Below, one piece after another: positions 53,220 to 64,000 of a stretch of 64,000 nucleotides of DNA. The stretch's first letter is position 1. Each line of letters opens with the position of its first letter. The stretch is from Microbacterium invictum (GTDB lineage Bacteria > Actinomycetota > Actinomycetes > Actinomycetales > Microbacteriaceae), in the NCBI RefSeq assembly GCF_014197265.1, contig NZ_JACIFH010000001.1:2914001-2978000 (forward strand), given 5' to 3'. The translations under genes and the position numbers were made by a program. The notes beneath the pieces are model-generated. The model searched no databases. It was given only the letters and a program-made list of their open reading frames with translations, and was not told the DNA's origin.

Positions 53220-54329
53220 ATGTCTGTTCCGCCGTACCGCGCCGACATCGTCGGCAGCTTCCTCCGTCCCTCCGTCCTCGCCGACATCCGTCGCCGTCAT
53301 GCTGCCGGTGAGGTGGATGCCGATGCGCTGCGCATCGCGGAGGACACCGCCATCGCGGAACTCCTGCAGCAGGAGGCCGACGCGGGCCTGAAGCTCGCCA
53401 CCGACGGAGAGTTCCGCCGGTCGTGGTGGCATTTCGACTTCTTCGGCTTTCTCGACGGAGTCGACATCGTCGAGCTCGACCACGGCATCCAGTTCACCGG
53501 CGTGCAGACCAAGCCGCGCGGCGTCGAGGTCAGCGGCAAGATCGGCTTCAGCGACACCCACCCGTTCCTCGAGCACTTCCGCTCGCTCAAGGACCTGCTC
53601 GCCCGCTCGACCGGAGCGACCCCGAAGTTCACGATCCCGGCCCCGACCGTGCTGGACTTCCGGCTCGAGCCCGGCCACATCGGCGGCGGCTACAGCGGTC
53701 GCGACGACATCGTCGACGACCTCGTGCAGGCCTACCGCGACGCCGTCGCCGCGTTCTACGACGCCGGCGCGCGCTACCTGCAGTTCGACGACACCGCCTG
53801 GGCGTACCTGTGCAGCGAGGCCGAGCTGGCCAAGGCGCGCGAGCGCGGCATCCACACCGACGGCATCGCCGAGCGATACGCGGGGATCCTCAACCGCATC
53901 CTCGACGGCAAGCCCGACGACCTGACGGTCACCACCCACGTGTGTCGCGGCAACTTCCGTTCGACCTGGATCTCCTCGGGCGGCTACGAGCCGGTCGCCG
54001 AGCAGCTGCTCGGCAATACGGCGTACGACGGCTACTTCCTCGAGTACGACACCGAGCGTGCGGGCGGGTTCGAGCCGCTGCGGTTCCTCCCCGAAGGCGA
54101 CAAGACCGTCGTGCTCGGCCTCATCACCACGAAGTCCGGTGAACTCGAAGACGTCCCCGCGATCAAGGCGCGCATCGACGAGGCCGCCACGTTCGCGCCG
54201 CTGGGCCAGCTCGCGCTGAGCCCGCAGTGCGGCTTCGCGTCGACCGAAGAGGGCAACGAACTCACCGAGGACGAGCAGTGGGGGAAGGTGCGCGAGGTCG
54301 TCGCCATCGCCGACGACGTCTGGCGCTGA
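53220..54329 (+). CDS. MetE-like cobalamin-independent methyltransferase (C-terminal domain type)
   Basis: A 369-residue stand-alone homologue of the MetE C-terminal barrel. The zinc site is kept: His240 and Cys242 in THVCRGN, a glutamate in FLEYDTER (Glu275) and Cys337 in LSPQCGFAS. Full MetE has about 750 residues with an N-terminal half; this short form resembles YxjG/YxjH-type enzymes that use a methyl-folate or other methyl donor with homocysteine or another thiol. TAGGCT lies 6 nt before the ATG. It ends beside a cluster with two folate-dependent O-demethylases, so it could recycle the methyl-tetrahydrofolate they make. Confidence 0.88.
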   Translation: MSVPPYRADIVGSFLRPSVLADIRRRHAAGEVDADALRIAEDTAIAELLQQEADAGLKLATDGEFRRSWWHFDFFGFLDGVDIVELDHGIQFTGVQTKPRGVEVSGKIGFSDTHPFLEHFRSLKDLLARSTGATPKFTIPAPTVLDFRLEPGHIGGGYSGRDDIVDDLVQAYRDAVAAFYDAGARYLQFDDTAWAYLCSEAELAKARERGIHTDGIAERYAGILNRILDGKPDDLTVTTHVCRGNFRSTWISSGGYEPVAEQLLGNTAYDGYFLEYDTERAGGFEPLRFLPEGDKTVVLGLITTKSGELEDVPAIKARIDEAATFAPLGQLALSPQCGFASTEEGNELTEDEQWGKVREVVAIADDVWR

Positions 54330-54484: not shown

Positions 54485-55477
54485 TCAGTGCCCCTCGAGG
54501 GCCTTGCGGTCGATCTCCTCCTGGTTCGCCACGAACGGCGTGCCGTGCGTGTGGAACGTCGCGACCGTCTTCATCCCCCAGGCCTGACCCTTCGCGCGCT
54601 CGGCCTGGCTCCACTCGACGACCGGCCAGTCGGGGTCCAGCAGCAGCCGCGCCTGTGCGTTCGCGAACTCGATGCGGTTGCCGCCCGGCTCCCACACGTA
54701 CAGGAAGAACGTCTGGTTGATGGCGTGCTTGTAGGGCCCGTACTCGATGTAGATGCCGTTCTCGAGGCAGATGTCGGCGGCTTTGAGGATGTCCTCTCGC
54801 GAGTCGGGCGCGAACGCGAAGTGGTGGAAGCGCCCGCGCTCGCCGGTCCAGTCGTCGGAGTACACGACGTCGTACGACTTCTGGTGGAACCGGAACCACC
54901 ACGCGCCGTAACGGCCGTCATCGAGCCGCACGCGCTCGGACTCGCGGGCGAACATCACATCGCGCCAGAACTCACCGGCTTTGTTCACGTCTGAGGCCAG
55001 GTAGTTGATGTGGTCCATGCGGCGCGCGTTGATGCCGCGGCCGGGGTAGGCCGAGGCCTGGTTCTTCAGGGCCGGGCGGTCGTCGTCGTCGGGCACGTAG
55101 TGCTCGGTGTCGTAGTAGATGCCCATGAGGTGCCCGTCCGGGTCCTCGAACTCGTACGACCGGCCGACCCCGACCTCGGGGTCGCGCCAGCCGTGGCCGA
55201 GTCCGGCGGCCTCGATCGCGGCGACGCGCCGCTGCAGCGCGTCCTCGCTGGTCGCCCGGAAGAGCGTGCGGCCGACGCCGTTGGTGTGGGATGCCGTGAG
55301 TTTGAGCGTGTAGAGCTGATACTCGTCCCAGCAGCGCAGATACGAGGAGTCGCCGATGCGCGCCACTTCGCGCATCGCGCAGATGTCGCGGAAGAAGTGG
55401 AGGCTCTCGTCGAACTTCGGGGTGAACAGCTCGACGCCGCCGATGTGGGCGAGATCGAAGTTCTCGGTTACGGCCAT
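54485..55477 (-). CDS. Type I (VOC) extradiol ring-cleavage dioxygenase
   Basis: A 330-residue two-domain dioxygenase of the catechol 2,3-dioxygenase type. The N-terminal domain starts DLAHIGGVELFTP; the C-terminal domain carries the Fe(II) ligands His156 (MDHINYL), His218 or His219 (FHHFAFAPD) and Glu270 (GGNRIEFAN). Tyr244-246 region (IYIEYGP) holds the second-shell residues. GAGAGGA precedes the ATG at 55477. It is the last gene of the galB-ligK-galD unit, so the expected substrate is the catechol feeding that route, gallate or protocatechuate. Known gallate and protocatechuate 4,5-dioxygenases are mostly of the unrelated LigAB type, which makes this notable. Confidence 0.88.
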   Translation of the reverse strand: MAVTENFDLAHIGGVELFTPKFDESLHFFRDICAMREVARIGDSSYLRCWDEYQLYTLKLTASHTNGVGRTLFRATSEDALQRRVAAIEAAGLGHGWRDPEVGVGRSYEFEDPDGHLMGIYYDTEHYVPDDDDRPALKNQASAYPGRGINARRMDHINYLASDVNKAGEFWRDVMFARESERVRLDDGRYGAWWFRFHQKSYDVVYSDDWTGERGRFHHFAFAPDSREDILKAADICLENGIYIEYGPYKHAINQTFFLYVWEPGGNRIEFANAQARLLLDPDWPVVEWSQAERAKGQAWGMKTVATFHTHGTPFVANQEEIDRKALEGH

Positions 55478-55505
55478 GGTGGTGTCCTCTCTGACATGGT
55501 GGATG

Positions 55506-56624
55506 CTACAGCCGGGGCCGGGGGAAGACCCGGCCGTCGAAGATCTTGCGGGCGGTGCGCAGCGACAGGGACGCCGCTCGCCAGGCGCCGTCGGCACCGC
55601 GCCAGACGCGGACATCGGCGGGGAACACGCCGCTCGGGTGCTCGATGAGGGTCGGTCCGTCGTCTTCGCCGCCGGTCGTGTCGTCTTCGCCGCGCGGCCG
55701 GCCGCCGTCGGACAGCCGGGCGAGATCAGCGCCGACGGCGCCGGGAATGCGGATCCCGGCTGCGACCGATGCGGCCATGAGCACGCCGATCGAGGTGTGA
55801 ACCCGATGCGGGATGAACCCGCGGGCCGCGATCGCGCCGCCGCCGCGAGGCGGGGCGAGCAGGAACATCTTCGGAACCGTCTGGGCGCTCACATCGCCCA
55901 GTCCCATCAGCGGGCCGGCCGCGAGGCGCACCCGTTCGACCTGTGCGACGAGATCGGCGCGCTCCTCGAGCTCGGTGGGAGTCTCGGTGCCGTCGACGCC
56001 GAACTCACCGGCATCCATCAGCACCACCGGCATGCCGTTGTCGATGAGCGTGACACGGTGGCCGGCGACCTCGTCGGTGACGTTGCCGGTCGGCAGCAGC
56101 GACTTGCCGGGCGCGGCCGCGAGCTCGAGGTCGATGGGGCAGGCCCGCCCGGGCACCCCGTCGATGAGTGCTTCGCCGTCGTAGTCGACGCGGCCGCCGG
56201 GCGTGGCGAAGGTCGCCGTGGCGATGTCGCCGGTGTTCACAAGGCGGATGCGGAGAGTCGTGGTCGTTCCGGATGCCGCGACCAGTCCGCGCTCGACGGC
56301 GAACGGTCCGACGCCGGCGAGCAGATTGCCGCAGGTCTGCGCCGTGCTCACAACCGGCGCGTCCACGACGACCTGCAGGAACAGGTAATCTACGTCGATG
56401 CCCGGCTCGCCCGAGCGGCTCACGATCGCGACCTTGCTGGTCAGCGGGTGCGCGCCGCCGAGCCCGTCGATCTGCGTCGGATCGGGGCTGCCCATGACCC
56501 GCAGCAGCAGGTCGTCGCGCTCGGCCGGGTCCTCCGGCACGTCCTCGGCGAGGAAGTACGCGCCCTTCGACGTGCCGCCGCGCGTGAGCATGCACGCAAT
56601 GCCGTCGCGGACTGGATCAGCCAC
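55506..56624 (-). CDS. galD: 4-oxalomesaconate tautomerase (PrpF family)
   Basis: A 372-residue PrpF-fold isomerase. MLTRGGTSKGAYF near the N terminus, with the catalytic lysine in G-T-S-K-G, AQTCGNLLAGVGPFA around the active-site Cys, and PHRVHTSIGVLMAAS near 275 are the family blocks. GalD interconverts keto and enol 4-oxalomesaconate so that the hydratase can use it. The GTG start lies inside the end of ligK (8-nt overlap). Aconitate isomerase is the alternative within PrpF, but the two neighbouring genes decide for GalD. Confidence 0.9.
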   Translation of the reverse strand: MADPVRDGIACMLTRGGTSKGAYFLAEDVPEDPAERDDLLLRVMGSPDPTQIDGLGGAHPLTSKVAIVSRSGEPGIDVDYLFLQVVVDAPVVSTAQTCGNLLAGVGPFAVERGLVAASGTTTTLRIRLVNTGDIATATFATPGGRVDYDGEALIDGVPGRACPIDLELAAAPGKSLLPTGNVTDEVAGHRVTLIDNGMPVVLMDAGEFGVDGTETPTELEERADLVAQVERVRLAAGPLMGLGDVSAQTVPKMFLLAPPRGGGAIAARGFIPHRVHTSIGVLMAASVAAGIRIPGAVGADLARLSDGGRPRGEDDTTGGEDDGPTLIEHPSGVFPADVRVWRGADGAWRAASLSLRTARKIFDGRVFPRPRL

Positions 56625-57318
56625 GGTCGTACTCGGCCTGAGTGATGTAGCGCACCCCGAGCTCCTCGAGCAACGGACGCAGGCCCTTGCGGTCGAGGCT
56701 CAGCTGCTGCCCGCTGCCGTACGCGGCCCGGTCGGCGTCTTCCTTCGCGACGCGGGCGTCGGCGCCGGCGAGGGCCGCGTCGACCTGCAGCCGGGGAACG
56801 ATGACGACGCCGTCGTCGTCGGCGATGACGACGTCACCGGGGCGCACGCGCGCGCCGTCGATGACGACGGGGACGTTCACCGATCCGCCGGTGGCCTTCA
56901 CCGAGCCCTGGGCGAACACGGCTGCCGACCAGGCCGGGAAGCCCATCTCGCGCAGGTCGGCGATGTCGCGCACGCCGGTCGTGGTCACGATGCCGCGCAC
57001 GCCGCGCGCCTTCAGCGCGCTGGCGAACAGGTCGCCGAACAGGCCGTCGCGGTTGGGGGAGGTCGTGGTGACCACCAGCACATCGCCCGCCTGACACTGC
57101 TCGATCGCCGCGTGGATCATGAGGTTGTCGCCCGGCCAGTTGAGCACCGTCACGGCCGATCCGGCGATGCGCGCCCCGTCCTGGATCGGCCGGATCGACG
57201 GCCCCACCAGTCCGGTGCGGCCCATGGCCTCATGCACCGTCGCGACGCCGTGCCCGGCCAGCCGGTCGATCACCCCGGCATCGGCCCGCACGATGTCGGT
57301 GACGATGACGCCGCTCAT
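56617..57318 (-). CDS. ligK: 4-carboxy-4-hydroxy-2-oxoadipate aldolase/oxaloacetate decarboxylase
   Basis: A 233-residue RraA-fold aldolase (LigK/GalC) that splits 4-carboxy-4-hydroxy-2-oxoadipate to pyruvate and oxaloacetate. GVATVHEAMGRTGLVGPSIRP opens the fold; NLMIHAAIEQCQAGDVLVV and VRGIVTTTGVRDIADLREMG hold the Arg-Asp metal and substrate pair, and PGDVVIADDDGVVIVPR is the conserved C-terminal strand. The ATG overlaps the galB stop codon by 4 nt, and galD starts within its 3' end, so three genes are translationally coupled. Confidence 0.92.
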   Translation of the reverse strand: MSGVIVTDIVRADAGVIDRLAGHGVATVHEAMGRTGLVGPSIRPIQDGARIAGSAVTVLNWPGDNLMIHAAIEQCQAGDVLVVTTTSPNRDGLFGDLFASALKARGVRGIVTTTGVRDIADLREMGFPAWSAAVFAQGSVKATGGSVNVPVVIDGARVRPGDVVIADDDGVVIVPRLQVDAALAGADARVAKEDADRAAYGSGQQLSLDRKGLRPLLEELGVRYITQAEYDRG

Positions 57319-58070
57319 CTCAGGACGTCCGTCACCTGCGGGTAGTACCGCATGTATGCCTCGCCCATCGTCTCGTGCGCGAGGCCCAGGTTGGCGGCCG
57401 CATTGCGCTTGACCTGCACGCCGCGCCGCACGGCGAGGTCGGTGTAGTAAGTCCACATGTGCTTCTGGGCCGGCAGGCATTCCATCGCGGCGCGCTTGGC
57501 GGGGAACGCCGCGGTGATGTCGAGCAGCACGTTGGGCTTGAAGTCGCATTGCTCGCTCTGGTGCGGTTCGAAGAAGAACACCGGCGGCGCGCCGATGATG
57601 TCCTCCTTCGACGGGAAGGAACCGTCGGAGTTCGCGACCCCGATCGCCTGCGCCAGGACGCGGGCTTGCAGCGCCATGCGCGCGGCGGCCGGGTGGTCGC
57701 CGTTGTACGGATCGAGGAGCGGATGCGTCAGCACGACGTCGGGCTGGGTACGGCGGAACACGTCGACGAGTTTCGCGACCGCTTCCGGCGATTCGATCAG
57801 CGGGTAGTCGCCGAGGTCGAGGAATTCGATCTCGGCCCCCAGGGCGGATGCCGCGGCCTCGGCCTCGCCGCGCCGGATCGCCTTGATCTCGTCGAGCCCC
57901 TTGCCGGCGAGCCACTGACTGGCCGACTCGCCCCGCTCGCCGTATGACAGGCACGCGATCACGGCGCGCTCACCGCGCTGCGTCGCGGCGGCGATGGCGC
58001 CGCCCGCGCGCCACACGAAGTCGCCCGCATGGGCGCTGACGACCAGCAGGGTAGGCACAGAGCTCGACAT
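57315..58070 (-). CDS. galB: 4-oxalomesaconate hydratase (PIG-L fold)
   Basis: A 251-residue protein of the PIG-L deacetylase fold. The usual AHPDDE zinc motif reads AHAGDFVWRAGG, as in GalB hydratases, with the later zinc histidine in TYPE H-P-L-L-D-P-Y-N-G-D-H-P. GalB adds water to 4-oxalomesaconate to give 4-carboxy-4-hydroxy-2-oxoadipate. A GGAGGA sits immediately before ATG 58070, closer than ideal; an in-frame GTG 12 nt further on is an alternative. It is the first gene of the galB-ligK-galD-dioxygenase unit and is divergent from the LigM-like gene. Confidence 0.9.
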   Translation of the reverse strand: MSSSVPTLLVVSAHAGDFVWRAGGAIAAATQRGERAVIACLSYGERGESASQWLAGKGLDEIKAIRRGEAEAAASALGAEIEFLDLGDYPLIESPEAVAKLVDVFRRTQPDVVLTHPLLDPYNGDHPAAARMALQARVLAQAIGVANSDGSFPSKEDIIGAPPVFFFEPHQSEQCDFKPNVLLDITAAFPAKRAAMECLPAQKHMWTYYTDLAVRRGVQVKRNAAANLGLAHETMGEAYMRYYPQVTDVLR

Positions 58071-58103
58071 TCCTCCAGCGAACCACACCGCGCCGGAAAT
58101 GGT

Positions 58104-58125
58104 CAAGATTTTGTCAACAATCTTG
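58104..58125. promoter_or_regulatory. Operator-like dyad between galB and ligM
   Basis: CAAGATT and AATCTTG are perfect 7-bp arms with an 8-nt spacer that itself contains most of TTGTCAACAA, an inner dyad. A GGAAAT/ATTTCC pair (58095-58100, 58136-58141) flanks it on both sides. The position in the middle of the 142-bp divergent region suggests control of both transcripts, by the IclR protein or another regulator. Confidence 0.6.
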
Positions 58126-58144
58126 GTGGAATCACATTTCCCTC

Positions 58145-58173
58145 TGGACATAGTGAAATTGCGGCTCTACCAT
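58145..58173 (+). promoter_or_regulatory. Predicted promoter of the LigM-like gene
   Basis: TGGACA (58145-58150), 17 bp, TACCAT (58168-58173) resembles a vegetative promoter. It ends 39 nt before the start codon, so this transcript has a leader, unlike many genes in the window. Confidence 0.5.
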
Positions 58174-58191
58174 CGGCAATGAACCCACTGA

Positions 58192-59619
<1,428 letters not shown>

Positions 59620-59660
59620 TCTGCCCGGGCTGCGCCCTCGCGGTCGCTGGTGCGCGATAC

Positions 59661-59771
59661 GCGCCAGTTCCCGGCATCCGCTACGCATATAAGTGGCGCG
59701 GATGCCGGGATGTGGCGCGGCGGGTGACGTGGGGCTCCGGGAAGTGGCGCGGATGCCGGGATGTGGCGCGG
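59661..59771. repeat. Repeat cluster: 30-bp direct repeat plus inverted copy
   Basis: An exact 30-bp sequence occurs at 59691-59720 and again at 59742-59771 (starts AAGTGGCGCGGATGCCGG). A third, inverted and slightly diverged copy lies at about 59661-59680 (CGCCAGTTCCCGGCATCCG). The inverted and first direct copies form a hairpin after the end of the LigM-like gene, before the convergent DUF1932 gene. The core again contains GGATGCCGGGA. Confidence 0.75.
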
Positions 59772-59793
59772 GCGGGTCGTGGGCGCTCCGCGC

Positions 59794-60570
59794 TCAGGCG
59801 TCCCGAGGCGTGGCGAGCCGTTCGAGCCACTCGAGCGTCGCCCGCGACATATCCGCGGGTGTCCCGAGTGCCTCGAGCGCGGCGACCGCGGCGCGCACCT
59901 CGTGGGCGCGGCGCACGGCGTGCTGTCCGGACCCGTCGACCAGGCGCTCGAGCAGGGCGTCGCCGTCGGGTCCGAGCTCGGCGGCGATCTGCCCGCGCAG
60001 CCAGTCCTCGGCGCCGATCGCCTGGGCGGCGGTGAGCCCCTCGAGGGTCAGCGCGGCGAGTCCCTTCATGAAGACGCTGCGCAGCAGCCGCAGGCGCGAG
60101 GCGTCCCCGGCTGGGCCCTCGAGCACGTCGACCGGCACGCCGAACGGTGCCAGGGCGTCGGCGAGCGTCGTCGCCCCGTCGCCGCTGGCCAGCAGCGGAG
60201 TGCGGTGCCCGGCGCGCACGACCGGAGCGAGCACCGCGACGTCGGCCATCAGCACGCCGCGCACGGCGGCCGCGGAGGCGATCCGCTGTTTGACTTCGGG
60301 TGCGCCCGAATTGAGGTCCGCGTACACGGCGCCCGCCCGCACGTGCGGCAATGCGTCGTCGGCGATGGATGCCGCGATGTGGCCGGCCACGAGACTGACC
60401 ACGACGTCGGCTCCGGCCAGAGCCTCCTCGAGCGTCGGCGTCTGGGTCACGGCCGGGTCACCGAGCTCATGGGCCGGATCGTAGCCGCGCACCTCGGCGC
60501 CGGCACCCGCCAGACCGCGTGCATAGCGGCTGCCTGCCTCGCCGAGCCCCAGGATCGTGATCGTCGTCAT
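59794..60570 (-). CDS. NAD(P)-binding dehydrogenase, DUF1932 type
   Basis: A 258-residue protein of the beta-hydroxyacid/6-phosphogluconate dehydrogenase superfamily. ITILGLGEAGSRYARGLAGAG is the dinucleotide fold, ADLNSGAPEVKQRI contains the substrate-side Ser/Asn segment, and the C-terminal 100 residues are the all-helical DUF1932 domain (LRSVFMKGLAALTLEGLTAA, with the catalytic Lys region). The start may instead be the GTG at 60582, which overlaps the IclR stop codon. It is co-transcribed with the IclR and DesA-like genes. Its step in the aromatic pathway is not known. Confidence 0.82.
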   Translation of the reverse strand: MTTITILGLGEAGSRYARGLAGAGAEVRGYDPAHELGDPAVTQTPTLEEALAGADVVVSLVAGHIAASIADDALPHVRAGAVYADLNSGAPEVKQRIASAAAVRGVLMADVAVLAPVVRAGHRTPLLASGDGATTLADALAPFGVPVDVLEGPAGDASRLRLLRSVFMKGLAALTLEGLTAAQAIGAEDWLRGQIAAELGPDGDALLERLVDGSGQHAVRRAHEVRAAVAALEALGTPADMSRATLEWLERLATPRDA

Positions 60571-60578
60571 CGCGGCAC

Positions 60579-61448
60579 TCACGATAGTCCCGGGTCGGCC
60601 GGGTCGTGCTCGAGGCTCTCGAGGTAGGCGAGCGAGCGTGTCGACCCGCGCATGAGGCGGCGGATGCCGTGGGGCCGCTCGTCGACGTCGGCGCGGTACG
60701 CCTCGGCCAGGTCGCGGGTGATGCCGCGCGCGGCGCGGTGCAGCAGTTCCACATACGGCGCCGGCGACGAACCGTCGGTGGGCACGACCACGCCGGCCGC
60801 CGCGTACACCGAGCCGTCGGGACCGTGCACCGGCACCGCGATGCCGCGCGACTCGGGATGGATGTGCCCCTCGGTCACCGCCCACCCCTCCGCCCGCACG
60901 CGGCGCAGCACGGCCGACAGCTCCGTGCCGGTGCGGATCGTGTGGTCGGTGTAGACGCGGAGGTCGCTCTCGGCGACCGCCGCAATCACCGACGGGTCGG
61001 CGTGGGCGAGCAGCACCAGCCCGCTCGACGAGGCGTGCAACGGGATGCGGCCGCCGATCAGGGTGGCATTGACCACGGCATCCGGTGTCGACATGCGCTC
61101 GATGAAGAGAACATCGCGCCCGCTGAGCACGCCCAGCTGCACGTGCTGGCGCACGCGCTCGTGCACCGCGCCGAGCCAAGGCCGGGCGATCTCGCGCAGC
61201 CCGACCGCGCCGGGCGTGCGGCTGGCGTACTCCCACAGCCGCACCCCGAGCCGGTAGGTGCGATCGGGGAGGCGCTCGAGAAGACCCTCGCGCTCCAGCT
61301 CAGCAACCAGGCGGTGCGCCGACGACCTGGCCAGTCCCGCCGACTCGGCGATCTCGCTGAGTGTCAGGAATGGATGCCAGGCGTCGAAGCAGTCGAGCAC
61401 GCGCAGATGCTTGTGCAGCACCGACTCGCCGGCTGAGCTTCGCGCCAC
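60579..61448 (-). CDS. IclR-family transcriptional regulator
   Basis: A 289-residue regulator. The winged helix is at about 10-75 (FLTLSEIAESAGLARSSAHR, then LVAELEREGLLER); the ligand-binding GAF-like IclR domain runs from about 85 to 260. This family controls protocatechuate, homogentisate and gallate genes in many bacteria. The GTG start has GGAGGA 6 nt upstream. It lies between the DesA-like gene and the DUF1932 gene on one strand and is the obvious regulator for the dyads at 62923-62943 and possibly 58104-58125. Confidence 0.92.
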   Translation of the reverse strand: MARSSAGESVLHKHLRVLDCFDAWHPFLTLSEIAESAGLARSSAHRLVAELEREGLLERLPDRTYRLGVRLWEYASRTPGAVGLREIARPWLGAVHERVRQHVQLGVLSGRDVLFIERMSTPDAVVNATLIGGRIPLHASSSGLVLLAHADPSVIAAVAESDLRVYTDHTIRTGTELSAVLRRVRAEGWAVTEGHIHPESRGIAVPVHGPDGSVYAAAGVVVPTDGSSPAPYVELLHRAARGITRDLAEAYRADVDERPHGIRRLMRGSTRSLAYLESLEHDPADPGLS

Positions 61449-61489
61449 GGCATCCTCCAGGGTGTCGCCGTCATGCTAACGCGACCGTC

Positions 61490-62860
61490 TCAGCCGTTCG
61501 CGCGATACACCGTCCGGGCGAAGTCGTGGTACGGCGCCGGGGCGACAGTGGCACGGATGCGCACCTGCCGGTGCGCGGCGTCGACCGAGCCCTTGCGCGA
61601 GATCGGATCCTCGCCCCACACGACCTCGACCTGTTCGCCGTCGGCGATGCCGACGTCGAGCGTCGCCAGCGACATGTAGAGCTGGTCGAACGCGACATAG
61701 CCGGCATCCGTCGAGATCCCGACGAGCTCGTCACCCTTGCGGATCTCGTCCATCTGGTAGAGCCCGTACCGCGCCTTCGGGAAGTCGAGGTACTTCGCGG
61801 GGATGCCCGGCTCGATCTGGGAGCGGACCACCGCCGCAACGTCGTCGGCGTGCCAGATGAGGGTCACCTTGCGCCGGCGCTGATTCTCGGCGTGCCTCTC
61901 GAGCGCAGCGCGGCCGTGGAAGTCGTGGTCGAAACGCACCGATCGGCCGAGGCCCAGGTCGTACGGGGTCATGTAGTAGTCGTGGATGTCGGGCGAGGCC
62001 AGCGACCCGCCGATCGACCCGGCGCGGGCGGCGGGCAGCCATTGGCGGTACTCGGCGAAGTCGTCGTCGAAGATCGCCGGGAACGGGGTGGGCACCCAGC
62101 CGGACTCGAGTGGCGATGACGAGTACGCCTTCGCCCCCACGCGGCGGATGCCGAACTCGGCACCGGCGGCCATGAGAGCGTCGAGCACGATCTCGTTGTC
62201 CTCCCACGGGCCGTAGAACTCGAAGCCGGGCTGCCCCGCCATGCCGTGCCGCAGCGCCTTGACCGGGCGGCCCGCGATCGTGACGTCGCCGATGTGGAAG
62301 AACTTGATCTCGGGCGGCGGGCCGCCGAACACCTTGGTCATGACCTCGTTCGCCTGCGGGCCCTGGAGCTCGTACCGGTAGAAGGTCGGCGGACCCTGGC
62401 GCATGTGCGAGTTCGCCTCGAGCCGGTGGTGCACGTCCTTGCCGGCCGCTTCGGCTTTCTCGGCGTTGAACCGCACCCAGTCGATCAGGAGGTGGTGCCC
62501 GATCAGCACGCGCCCGTCGGGTCCTTCGTCGTTGTAGAACAGGATGCCGTCGCCGATCAGGTAGCCGTCCTTGTTCACCGAGATGAGTTGCTTGGCCACG
62601 CCGCGCCGGAAGGTGGCGAACGTGTTCGGCGAGATCGACTCGAGCATCGGGGTCAGGTCATCACCGTGCAGGAACAGCTGCGTCATGTGGTGCGACTGGT
62701 CCATGAGCGCAACCGTGGTGTTCCACGCTCGCTGCTCGTCACGCCAGTTCGTGAACTCCGGCGCCACCGGGAAGGTGAAGGCCGGCCAGTTCTGATTGCG
62801 CAGCAGCTCGACGGGGCTGCCGGCGCGGGTGATCGCCTCGGCGAGGGACTCGGATGTCAT
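61490..62860 (-). CDS. desA: DesA-like O-demethylase, divergent LigM paralogue
   Basis: A 456-residue GcvT-fold O-demethylase clearly paralogous to the protein at 58213 (shared EFTNWR, AYSS then LESGW, RHGMAG). His58 (QSHHMT) and the late Tyr (KAYSS) are kept, but the Arg120 position reads His in VLIGHH and the Tyr29 position is Phe (AFTFPV). A different methoxy substrate is therefore likely; in SYK-6 the pair is DesA for syringate and LigM for 3-O-methylgallate. Two adjacent ATGs exist; 62860 has better spacing from AGGAAGG. It heads the unit DesA-IclR-DUF1932. Confidence 0.85.
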   Translation of the reverse strand: MTSESLAEAITRAGSPVELLRNQNWPAFTFPVAPEFTNWRDEQRAWNTTVALMDQSHHMTQLFLHGDDLTPMLESISPNTFATFRRGVAKQLISVNKDGYLIGDGILFYNDEGPDGRVLIGHHLLIDWVRFNAEKAEAAGKDVHHRLEANSHMRQGPPTFYRYELQGPQANEVMTKVFGGPPPEIKFFHIGDVTIAGRPVKALRHGMAGQPGFEFYGPWEDNEIVLDALMAAGAEFGIRRVGAKAYSSSPLESGWVPTPFPAIFDDDFAEYRQWLPAARAGSIGGSLASPDIHDYYMTPYDLGLGRSVRFDHDFHGRAALERHAENQRRRKVTLIWHADDVAAVVRSQIEPGIPAKYLDFPKARYGLYQMDEIRKGDELVGISTDAGYVAFDQLYMSLATLDVGIADGEQVEVVWGEDPISRKGSVDAAHRQVRIRATVAPAPYHDFARTVYRANG

Positions 62861-62922
62861 CATCGACCTTCCTATGGTTCGGTTGCGGCCAGCGTAGGAC
62901 CGGCGACAGCGTGAGGCGCGGA

Positions 62923-62943
62923 AAATTCCGTTGAACAGAATTT
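62923..62943. promoter_or_regulatory. 21-bp IclR-like operator between desA-like gene and livG
   Basis: The dyad is centred on TTCCGTTGAACAGAA (62926-62940) and extends to AAATTC...GAATTT, with a single mismatched pair. TTCCGTT/AACNGAA half-sites are of the kind used by IclR-family regulators, and an IclR gene lies 1.5 kb away. Confidence 0.62.
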
Positions 62944-62975
62944 CGGCATCCATCTCGCGATAAAGGAGCCAGGCT

Positions 62976-62993
62976 GTAACCGGCGCCGGTCAC
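62976..62993. promoter_or_regulatory. Second palindrome in the desA-livG divergent region
   Basis: ACCGGCGCCGGT is a perfect 12-bp palindrome (62979-62990), extending to 18 bp with one mismatch pair (GT...AC ends). It lies 38 bp before the -35 of the livG promoter and could bind a second regulator. Confidence 0.45.
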
Positions 62994-63030
62994 GATCCGG
63001 CCACGGCTCGGATGACTCGCACCAAAATCG

Positions 63031-63059
63031 TTGACAATCCGGCGGGGATTCCGTAACTT
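63031..63059 (+). promoter_or_regulatory. Promoter of the Liv-type importer operon
   Basis: TTGACA (63031-63036), 17 bp, TAACTT (63054-63059) is one of the best vegetative promoters in the window. The start codon follows 57 nt later with AAAGG as ribosome binding site. Confidence 0.68.
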
Positions 63060-63116
63060 CCTGAACACGAGGACGACCCGATTCCTCCATCCACGCGACG
63101 ACGCGAAAGGTGAGCG

Positions 63117-63899
63117 ATGGCTGCTGAGCTGACCTTGCACGACGTGAGCCTGCACTTCGGTGGCATCAAAGTGCTCCAGGAGGTCGGCTTCACCGTCGAA
63201 CCCGGCCAGATCTTCGGGCTCGTAGGGCCCAACGGCGCCGGCAAGACGTCGCTGTTCAACTGCATCAGCGGGCACTACCGGCCCTCGAGCGGCAGCATCC
63301 GCATCGACGACGTCGAGGTCACCGCCAAGCCCGCGTGGCGCATGTCGCGCCTGGGGCTGGCCCGCACCTTCCAGCACGCGGCGCTGCAGTTGGACAAGAC
63401 CGTGCTCGAGAACGTCATGCTCGGCGCCCATCCGCGGTTGCGCGGCGGACCCGTGGAATGGTCGCTGCGGCTTCCGTTCACCCGCAACGACGAACGCACG
63501 CTGCGCGCGGAAGCGCTCGACCTGCTCGAACGCCTCGACCTCGGCTGGGCCGCACACCGCACGCCCGACGAGCTGTCGCACGGGCTGCACAAGGGCATCG
63601 AACTGTCGCGGGCGCTGCTGCTGCGCCCCCGCCTGCTCATGCTCGACGAGCCGGCAGCCGGGCTGCCGCACTCGGAGGTCGACCGGCTCATCGAGCTGAT
63701 CCGCGGCGTCCGCGACGACTTCGACGTGACCATCGTCGTCGTCGAGCACCACATGGGTCTCATCGCCGCGCTCACCGAGCGTGTCGTCGTGCTCGACCAC
63801 GGCCGCAAGCTCATGGAGGGGACGGCCGCCGAAGCGCAGTCCGATCCCCGCGTCATCGAGGCGTATATCGGGAAGGACGCGGCTGATGACGCTGCTTGA
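63117..63899 (+). CDS. livG: Branched-chain-amino-acid-type ABC transporter ATPase, LivG-like
   Basis: A 260-residue ATPase. Walker A is GPNGAGKTS (about 37-45), GLARTFQHAAL follows the Q-loop region, the signature motif reads ELSHGLHKGIELSRALLLRP (degenerate, with SHG in place of SGG), and Walker B is LLMLDEPAAGL. LivG-type importers in aromatic clusters commonly carry benzoate-like acids. AAAGGTGAG precedes the ATG. livF starts 14 nt before its stop codon. The permease and binding-protein genes are expected beyond the right edge. Confidence 0.9.
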   Translation: MAAELTLHDVSLHFGGIKVLQEVGFTVEPGQIFGLVGPNGAGKTSLFNCISGHYRPSSGSIRIDDVEVTAKPAWRMSRLGLARTFQHAALQLDKTVLENVMLGAHPRLRGGPVEWSLRLPFTRNDERTLRAEALDLLERLDLGWAAHRTPDELSHGLHKGIELSRALLLRPRLLMLDEPAAGLPHSEVDRLIELIRGVRDDFDVTIVVVEHHMGLIAALTERVVVLDHGRKLMEGTAAEAQSDPRVIEAYIGKDAADDAA

Positions 63900-64000
63900 A
63901 CTGGAGGACGTCACCGCCTGGTACGGCCCGGTGCAGGTGCTCGACGCGGTCTCGCTGACCGTGCCCGACAACGGTGCGGTGGGCATCCTCGGCGCGAACG
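63886..64000 (+). CDS. livF: LivF-like ABC transporter ATPase, N-terminal end only
   Basis: The first 38 codons are visible (LLELEDVTAWYGPVQVLDAV, then VGILGAN just before Walker A). LivF proteins start with this Y-G-x-x-x-x-L-x-x-V pattern. The gene overlaps the end of livG by 14 nt in another frame, so the two ATPases are translated together. The rest lies outside the window. Confidence 0.85.
   Translation, partial: MTLLELEDVTAWYGPVQVLDAVSLTVPDNGAVGILGAN

What the first reader, a model, noticed from the sequence alone, without database searches (positions are those of the whole stretch)
54485..64000. Compact cluster for methoxylated aromatic acids, probably syringate to gallate to central metabolism
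Seen: two LigM/DesA-type O-demethylase homologues, a VOC extradiol dioxygenase, galB, ligK/galC and galD translationally coupled, an IclR regulator, a DUF1932 dehydrogenase and a Liv-type importer, all within 9.5 kb. Known: in Sphingobium SYK-6, DesA and LigM demethylate syringate and 3-O-methylgallate, and GalB/LigK/GalD process the gallate cleavage product. Inference: with two demethylases and no LigC or LigI in view, the path is syringate, 3-O-methylgallate, gallate, 4-oxalomesaconate, pyruvate plus oxaloacetate. A whole route of this kind in a Gram-positive actinobacterium, with a different ring-cleavage enzyme, may be undescribed.
Basis: partly seen in the sequence, partly recalled or inferred. 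Interest (0 to 1): 0.85.

Follow-up and report, generated by a model that had tools for sequence, protein, structure and literature searches.

The report
Gallate pathway with swapped ring-opening enzyme
An actinobacterium carries a gene cluster that probably strips methyl groups from lignin-derived acids and breaks down the resulting gallate, with a ring-opening enzyme from a different protein family than the known gallate dioxygenases.

Summary
The reported genes are there, and the cluster extends past the window. On the minus strand galB-galC-galD-VOC form an overlapping operon, facing a true LigM across a shared 142-base promoter region. Beyond the right edge lie the rest of a Liv importer, a GntR regulator, an aldehyde dehydrogenase, a third LigM-type gene, purU and a metF-like gene. 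Searches of the complete genome found no LigB-fold dioxygenase (so no GalA, DesB, DesZ or LigAB), no LigI, no LigJ and no VanA. The VOC protein is therefore the best candidate to feed GalD/GalB/GalC, which points to gallate cleavage to 4-oxalomesaconate. Comparison supports this: in 80 related loci the partner hydratase is either GalB (46) or the unrelated LigJ (19), never both, with seven switches on the best tree; of 15 loci with neither nearby, 7 genomes were searched and 7 have LigJ elsewhere. All 87 orthologous rows have a tyrosine where type I extradiol enzymes have their catalytic histidine. A conserved palindrome, ATTGTnnACAAT, marks the divergent promoters and points to the GntR regulator. 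Syringate as the entry substrate is plausible but unproven. New variant of a known pathway; no activity was tested.

The parts
53220..54329 (+). MetE-like methyltransferase (PRK06520 subfamily), possible outlet for methyl-tetrahydrofolate
   Evidence: NCBIfam NF005085 532.9 bits, cut-off 313; a homologue lies in 25 of 80 VOC loci. Role inferred.
54485..55477 (-). VOC-fold (type I extradiol) dioxygenase, proposed gallate dioxygenase with Tyr in place of the catalytic His
55506..56624 (-). galD, 4-oxalomesaconate tautomerase (PrpF fold)
   Evidence: NF033377 440.2 bits, cut-off 440; 6p3j 369 bits
56617..57324 (-). galC/ligK, 4-carboxy-4-hydroxy-2-oxoadipate aldolase
   Evidence: NF006731 308.6 bits, cut-off 179; TIGR02798 278.5, cut-off 304.5 not met; 3noj 229 bits
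57315..58070 (-). galB, hydratase of the oxalomesaconate step (PIG-L fold)
   Evidence: PF02585; 5cgz 246 bits
58110..58121 (.). palindromic operator-like site (ATTGTnnACAAT type) in the galB/ligM divergent promoter region
   Evidence: 9 of 10 fixed positions; 42 of 43 homologous intergenic regions reach 8 or more, against 4.7% of dinucleotide shuffles
58213..59619 (+). ligM, folate-dependent vanillate/3-O-methylgallate O-demethylase
   Evidence: NF047885 897.9 bits, cut-off 580; 5tl4 LigM 703 bits
59794..60576 (-). DUF1932 / 6-phosphogluconate-dehydrogenase-like oxidoreductase, role unknown
   Evidence: PF09130 and PF03446; homologues recur in VOC loci
60579..61448 (-). IclR-family regulator
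   Evidence: PF01614, PF09339; TIGR02431 135.9 bits, below cut-off 284.75
61490..62863 (-). second LigM/DesA-type folate O-demethylase, substrate unassigned
   Evidence: NF047633 479.4 (cut-off 800) and NF047885 424.4 (cut-off 580), neither met; 43% identical to the cluster's LigM
63027..63038 (.). second operator-like palindrome, between the second demethylase gene and livG
   Evidence: 9 of 10 fixed positions; with 58110 one of only two such sites in the 91 kb scanned, shuffled mean 0.25
63117..63899 (+). livG, first gene of a complete Liv-type importer that continues past the window
   Evidence: PF00005 and PF12399; livF, livH, livM and a binding protein follow (named by eye and by position)

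Best explanation
The cluster takes up and degrades gallate-type acids, free or methoxylated. LigM-type enzymes move the O-methyl group of 3-O-methylgallate (and perhaps syringate) to tetrahydrofolate; MetE-like, MetF-like and PurU enzymes recycle that methyl group. The VOC-fold enzyme opens gallate between carbons 4 and 5 to give 4-oxalomesaconate, and GalD, GalB and GalC convert this to pyruvate and oxaloacetate. The VOC enzyme has the His-His-Glu metal site (His157, His220, Glu271) but a tyrosine (Tyr203) where other type I extradiol enzymes have a catalytic histidine. A GntR regulator probably controls the divergent promoters through an ATTGTnnACAAT operator. Shown here: gene content, results of the genome searches, conserved linkage, the residue change, the conserved palindrome. 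Inferred: every reaction, the substrate, the role of the tyrosine, and the pairing of regulator and operator.
For: No LigB-fold protein, LigI, LigJ or VanA found in the complete genome (the LigB and VanA models ring in control genomes; the LigI and LigJ queries had no control in their own calls, but the LigJ query finds homologues in other genomes, and the LigI query in other loci). Of 80 related loci, 46 carry galB and 19 ligJ, none both; the LigJ call is backed by 2gwg, 586 bits. Seven galB/ligJ switches on the best quick tree of the VOC protein; well-supported branches force five changes of the ligJ label. Of 15 loci without a local hydratase, 7 genomes were searched and 7 have LigJ with the aldolase beside it; 2 are not held and 6 were not tested. 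Of 120 genomes of the family, 8 carry a VOC orthologue of 55% identity or more; all 8 have GalB (7, within about 3 kb) or LigJ (1, another contig), against 12 of the 112 others, Fisher p 1.5e-7, relatedness not corrected. Tyr203 in 87 of 87 orthologous rows against His in 4 of 4 paralogues.
Against: No activity was tested. 16 of 80 VOC loci show no LigM-type gene in the stretch held. LigI lies in 3 of 80 loci, which would suit cleavage of 3-O-methylgallate at least there. In 4 of 9 VOC-bearing genomes searched no GalD was found. The closest solved relative, 9wgj, is named catechol 1,2-dioxygenase. One orthologue (L019) has Arg at metal position 220. A third intradiol-family gene (genome 2497697) was not characterised, and cupin-type ring-cleaving enzymes were not searched, so another source of 4-oxalomesaconate is not fully excluded. 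The 80 loci were found from a VOC gene that lies beside galB.
Confidence: 0.72

Rival explanations
1. The VOC enzyme mainly cleaves 3-O-methylgallate (a functional counterpart of DesZ), giving PDC or CHMOD, and gallate is a side substrate.
For: LigI, which hydrolyses PDC, lies in 3 of 80 VOC loci (identity backed by 4d8l, 299 bits). Known 3-O-methylgallate routes include such branches (PMC12314914, passages).
Against: No LigI homologue found in this genome. None of the cluster genes scanned looks like a CHMOD methylesterase, though the genome was not searched for one. LigM, which would make gallate, faces galB across a short shared region in 43 loci.
Confidence: 0.15
2. The VOC enzyme acts on a catechol or another dihydroxy compound, and GalBCD are fed by an enzyme not recognised here.
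For: The best curated model is catechol 2,3-dioxygenase (277.2 bits, cut-off 320.2); 9wgj is named catechol 1,2-dioxygenase; an uncharacterised intradiol-family gene exists at genome 2497697.
Against: The catechol 2,3-dioxygenase cut-off is missed, the catalytic His is replaced, and the VOC gene keeps company with an oxalomesaconate-step hydratase through repeated enzyme swaps.
Confidence: 0.1

Closest known systems
Gallate pathway of Pseudomonas putida KT2440 (GalA, GalD, GalB, GalC)
   Same: The three lower steps are homologous to solved enzymes of that route: GalD 369 bits to 6p3j, GalB 246 bits to 5cgz, GalC 229 bits to 3noj (source organisms of these entries recalled).
   Different: GalA is of the LigB superfamily (PMC4250580, passages); this genome has no LigB-fold protein, and a VOC-fold protein lies in the operon instead.
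Syringate/vanillate system of Sphingobium SYK-6 (DesA, LigM, DesB, DesZ, LigI, LigJ, LigK)
   Same: A LigM homologue far above the curated cut-off, with C1-folate genes in the neighbourhood.
   Different: No DesA above its cut-off among the five demethylases scanned with the model, no LigB-fold dioxygenase, LigI or LigJ found; purU and a metF-like gene lie beside the third LigM-type gene.
AphC and catechol 2,3-dioxygenases (type I extradiol, VOC superfamily)
   Different: Tyr at the position of the catalytic His; genomic company of gallate-pathway genes.
Solved structure 9wgj, named catechol 1,2-dioxygenase
   Same: Closest solved relative by sequence (361.5 bits) and shares the tyrosine (alignment).
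   Different: Organism, substrate evidence and paper not known here; no held paper mentions 9WGJ and it is absent from the fold results shown.

Membership tests
LigM vanillate/3-O-methylgallate O-demethylase (58213-59619) | Score above the NCBIfam NF047885 cut-off | tested here: met
   897.9 bits against 580
DesA syringate O-demethylase (61490-62863) | Score above the NCBIfam NF047633 cut-off | tested here: not met
   479.4 bits against 800
GalD 4-oxalomesaconate tautomerase | Score above the NCBIfam NF033377 cut-off | tested here: met
   440.2 bits against 440, a bare pass
GalC/LigK aldolase | Score above curated cut-offs | tested here: inconclusive
   NF006731 met (308.6 of 179), TIGR02798 not met (278.5 of 304.5)
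GalB hydratase | PIG-L fold family and close match to solved GalB | tested here: met
   PF02585; 5cgz 246 bits, next solved relative 39 bits
Known gallate dioxygenases (GalA, DesB; LigB superfamily) | LigB-fold catalytic domain PF02900 | tested here: not met
   The VOC protein matches PF00903 only; 0 matches to PF02900 in the genome
Type I extradiol dioxygenase | VOC fold with His-His-Glu metal site | tested here: met
   Fold matches; the three positions are kept in 86 of 87 orthologous rows, L019 has Arg at 220
Type I extradiol dioxygenase | Second-sphere catalytic His (His200 of homoprotocatechuate 2,3-dioxygenase) | tested here: not met
   Tyr in 87 of 87 orthologous rows, His in 4 of 4 paralogues; alignment to solved enzymes
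Catechol 2,3-dioxygenase | Score above the TIGR03211 cut-off | tested here: not met
   277.2 bits against 320.2
Gallate dioxygenase (by activity) | Converts gallate to 4-oxalomesaconate | not testable with these tools
   Needs purified enzyme

The most novel reading that the evidence does not exclude
A second, independently evolved kind of gallate dioxygenase exists: a type I (VOC-fold) enzyme in which the catalytic histidine is fixed as tyrosine, fitting it to cut the bond between two hydroxyl-bearing carbons of a trihydroxylated ring, and it is widespread in Microbacterium, Arthrobacter and their relatives.
Probability: 0.6. Interest if true: 0.72.

Novelty: new variant of a known kind. Interest (0 to 1): 0.6.

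Why it matters
Gallate and syringate come from tannin and lignin breakdown. A review of the field places gallate dioxygenases in the LigB superfamily (PMC4250580, passages), so annotation that looks for GalA would miss this route. If true, many genes now called 'VOC family protein' or 'catechol 2,3-dioxygenase' in actinobacteria gain a function, Tyr203 with the neighbouring gal genes can mark them, and a natural His-to-Tyr replacement lets one test how this residue steers ring cleavage, a question otherwise studied on engineered variants of homoprotocatechuate dioxygenase (H200 variants among the solved structures).

Tried and rejected
Considered and rejected: GalA, DesB, DesZ or LigAB elsewhere in the genome (0 PF02900 matches); a PDC route through LigI; VanAB-type demethylation (0 VanA_C matches); IclR as the sole regulator (the palindrome lies within 200 bases of gntR in 17 of 17 loci with a reverse-strand gntR, and reaches 9 of 10 in 12 of 14 loci with a forward-strand gntR). 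Against this last point, the best site at this genome's own gntR promoter is only 8 of 10, and the consensus was read from the same loci on which it was then counted. Not searched: LigC, CHMOD methylesterase, cupin-type dioxygenases. 9wgj does not appear in the fold results shown (library up to April 2026), so its title stays unknown. In one search the third LigM query was out of frame and gave nothing usable; it was dropped. Groce and Lipscomb 2003 (turning homoprotocatechuate dioxygenase into an intradiol enzyme) was seen only as a title in a reference list; that it concerns His200 is recalled. Paper searches without a description of a VOC-type gallate dioxygenase in their listings: (20 of 500 listed), and more loosely 9, 10, 16; only open-licence papers are held.
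Full report
What is there. The window is bases 2914001-2978000 of a complete 3.58 Mb genome. Relatives found by the VOC search are mostly Microbacterium, with Arthrobacter, Sinomonas, Brevibacterium, Kocuria and others. The reported genes are confirmed. By coordinates galB, galC and galD overlap by 10 and 8 bases and the VOC gene follows galD by about 28, so the four fit one minus-strand operon. LigM is transcribed the other way across a 142-base region. Past the window edge come livF, livH, livM and a binding protein, a GntR regulator, an aldehyde dehydrogenase, a third LigM-type gene, purU and a metF-like gene. By window numbering the third LigM-type gene is at 71374-72780 and is 70% identical to LigM. 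PurU is above its cut-off (349.1 of 285.95); the metF-like gene is a weak match (35.0 bits, cut-off 310), so that name is tentative.

What the genome lacks. Whole-genome searches found no LigB-superfamily protein (4 of 14 control genomes ring) and no VanA (4 of 14 ring). LigI and LigJ queries taken from related loci found nothing; those two calls had no control, but the LigJ query found homologues in 7 of 7 other genomes and in 19 of 80 loci, and the LigI query in 3 of 80 loci. The genome has two adjacent intradiol-family genes at 3004758-3005683, presumably pcaHG, and one further PF00775 match at 2497697. If so, protocatechuate can go down the 3,4-cleavage route and GalBCD need another source of 4-oxalomesaconate. 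The VOC protein is the only candidate found in the searches made; cupin-type enzymes were not searched.

Comparative evidence. A scan of GTDB genomes gave 146 relatives, of which the best 80 loci were kept. Of these 80, 65 have galC, 69 galD, 64 a LigM-type gene and 25 the MetE-like gene in the stretch held. Forty-six have galB and 19 ligJ, none both, 15 neither. LigJ is unrelated to GalB in fold family but serves the same step: the L091 protein matches 4-oxalomesaconate hydratase 2gwg with 586 bits, and PMC12314914 names LigJ and GalB together as the hydratase acting after the tautomerase (passages). In L023, L027, L030 and L059 the same galC-galD-VOC set has ligJ in place of galB. On the best quick tree seven changes between galB and ligJ are needed; the tree has many weak forks, long outgroup branches and one genome present twice (L037 and L132), and starred branches force five changes of the ligJ label and six of the galB label, each counted against all other rows. 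Of the 15 loci with neither gene nearby, seven genomes were searched and all seven have LigJ and the aldolase side by side elsewhere. L022 and L068 are not held; L017, L028, L065, L067, L076 and L082 were not tested for LigJ. In L121 the LigJ neighbourhood looks by eye like a protocatechuate 4,5-cleavage cluster.

Genome-level test. In 120 genomes drawn from the family, nine matched the VOC query at 1e-60. One (G051, 40% identity) has His at the key position and was dropped as a paralogue. The other eight (55% identity or more) have GalB (7) or LigJ (1); 12 of the remaining 112 genomes do. Fisher's exact test gives 1.5e-7; with the paralogue kept, 9 of 9 against 11 of 111, it gives 1.6e-8. The cut-offs were mine and shared ancestry is not corrected for.

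The residue change. The phmmer alignments place Tyr203 on the histidine before the conserved acidic residue in LapB (3hpv), AphC (3lm4) and homoprotocatechuate dioxygenase (1f1r), while 9wgj has tyrosine too; that this histidine is His200 of the B. fuscum enzyme is recalled. All 87 orthologous rows (80 loci plus 7 fetched stretches) have tyrosine; four paralogues at 40% identity or less have histidine. The three metal positions are kept in 86 of 87; L019 has Arg at 220. The AlphaFold model is decent (mean pLDDT 81.6) but poor at 249-256 and 302-316, so no pocket was read from it. A paper passage says that mutants lacking this histidine bind catechol and oxygen at wild-type-like rates but are slower catalysts (PMC13383722). 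How the tyrosine works here is inference.

Regulation. ATTGTnnACAAT is matched at 8 or more of 10 fixed positions in 42 of 43 galB/ligM intergenic regions, against 4.7% of dinucleotide shuffles. It reaches 9 or 10 within 200 bases of gntR in 17 of 17 loci with a reverse-strand gntR (shuffled 3.2%, over 1.5 kb), and 9 or 10 in 12 of 14 loci with a forward-strand gntR, 8 in the other two. In the 91 kb around the window two sites reach 9, shuffled mean 0.25: 58110 and 63027, both in divergent promoter regions of this cluster. The genome's own gntR promoter has only an 8 of 10 site. The consensus was read from these data, so the counts are not an independent test. The pattern suggests a GntR regulon covering the gal operon, ligM, the second demethylase and the importer.

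Methyl-group handling. With no VanA found and six LigM/DesA-like genes, O-demethylation probably runs through tetrahydrofolate. purU and the metF-like gene beside the third LigM-type gene, and the MetE-like gene next to the VOC gene, are plausible outlets; this is inference.

Syringate. LigM is solid, but the syringate step needs a DesA-like activity that no model confirms. The second demethylase differs from LigM in several motifs, for example Phe where LigM has Tyr29. Syringate is a fair guess, not a result. Field labelling has put Microbacterium and other Microbacteriaceae among degraders of veratric acid, another methoxylated benzoate (PMC10602745, passages).

Literature. PMC4250580 places gallate dioxygenases in the LigB superfamily (passages). 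A LigB-type actinobacterial enzyme, PcaA, also cleaves gallate to 4-oxalomesaconate (PMC8431788, passages). A Rhodococcus VanAB stops at 3-O-methylgallate (PMC9867520, passages). PMC12314914 predicts complete syringate routes in some Actinomycetes from known enzyme types (passages). The searches made list no VOC-type gallate dioxygenase. The open point is 9wgj, a solved relative for which no paper was found.

Verdict. The pathway is known; the ring-cleavage enzyme appears to be a new variant, with the substrate still to be shown.

Noticed in passing
L011 9707-18046 (genome 2472706-2481045): A second group of three LigM/DesA-like genes beside a sulfatase-like gene; two are 67% identical to each other and none reaches a curated LigM or DesA cut-off.
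   Followed up: partly
window 59794-60576 and related loci: The DUF1932 dehydrogenase recurs in many VOC loci, with no step in the gallate route that I can name for it.
   Followed up: no
L033 4752-5702, L034, L092: LigI (PDC hydrolase) and an MFS transporter lie beside VOC, galD, ligJ and galC in three loci, hinting at PDC uptake or 3-O-methylgallate cleavage there.
   Followed up: partly
L022, L029, L091, L092: VOC loci with no LigM-type gene in reach carry a gntR and an ABC importer whose binding protein resembles the sulfonate/nitrate type by eye; they look like gallate-only versions.
   Followed up: partly
genome about 3001500-3005700 (L010, L093, L094): A gene that looks by eye like 4-hydroxybenzoate hydroxylase, two IclR-type regulators and two intradiol-family genes lie about 30 kb right of the cluster, making a wider aromatic-degradation region.
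   Followed up: no
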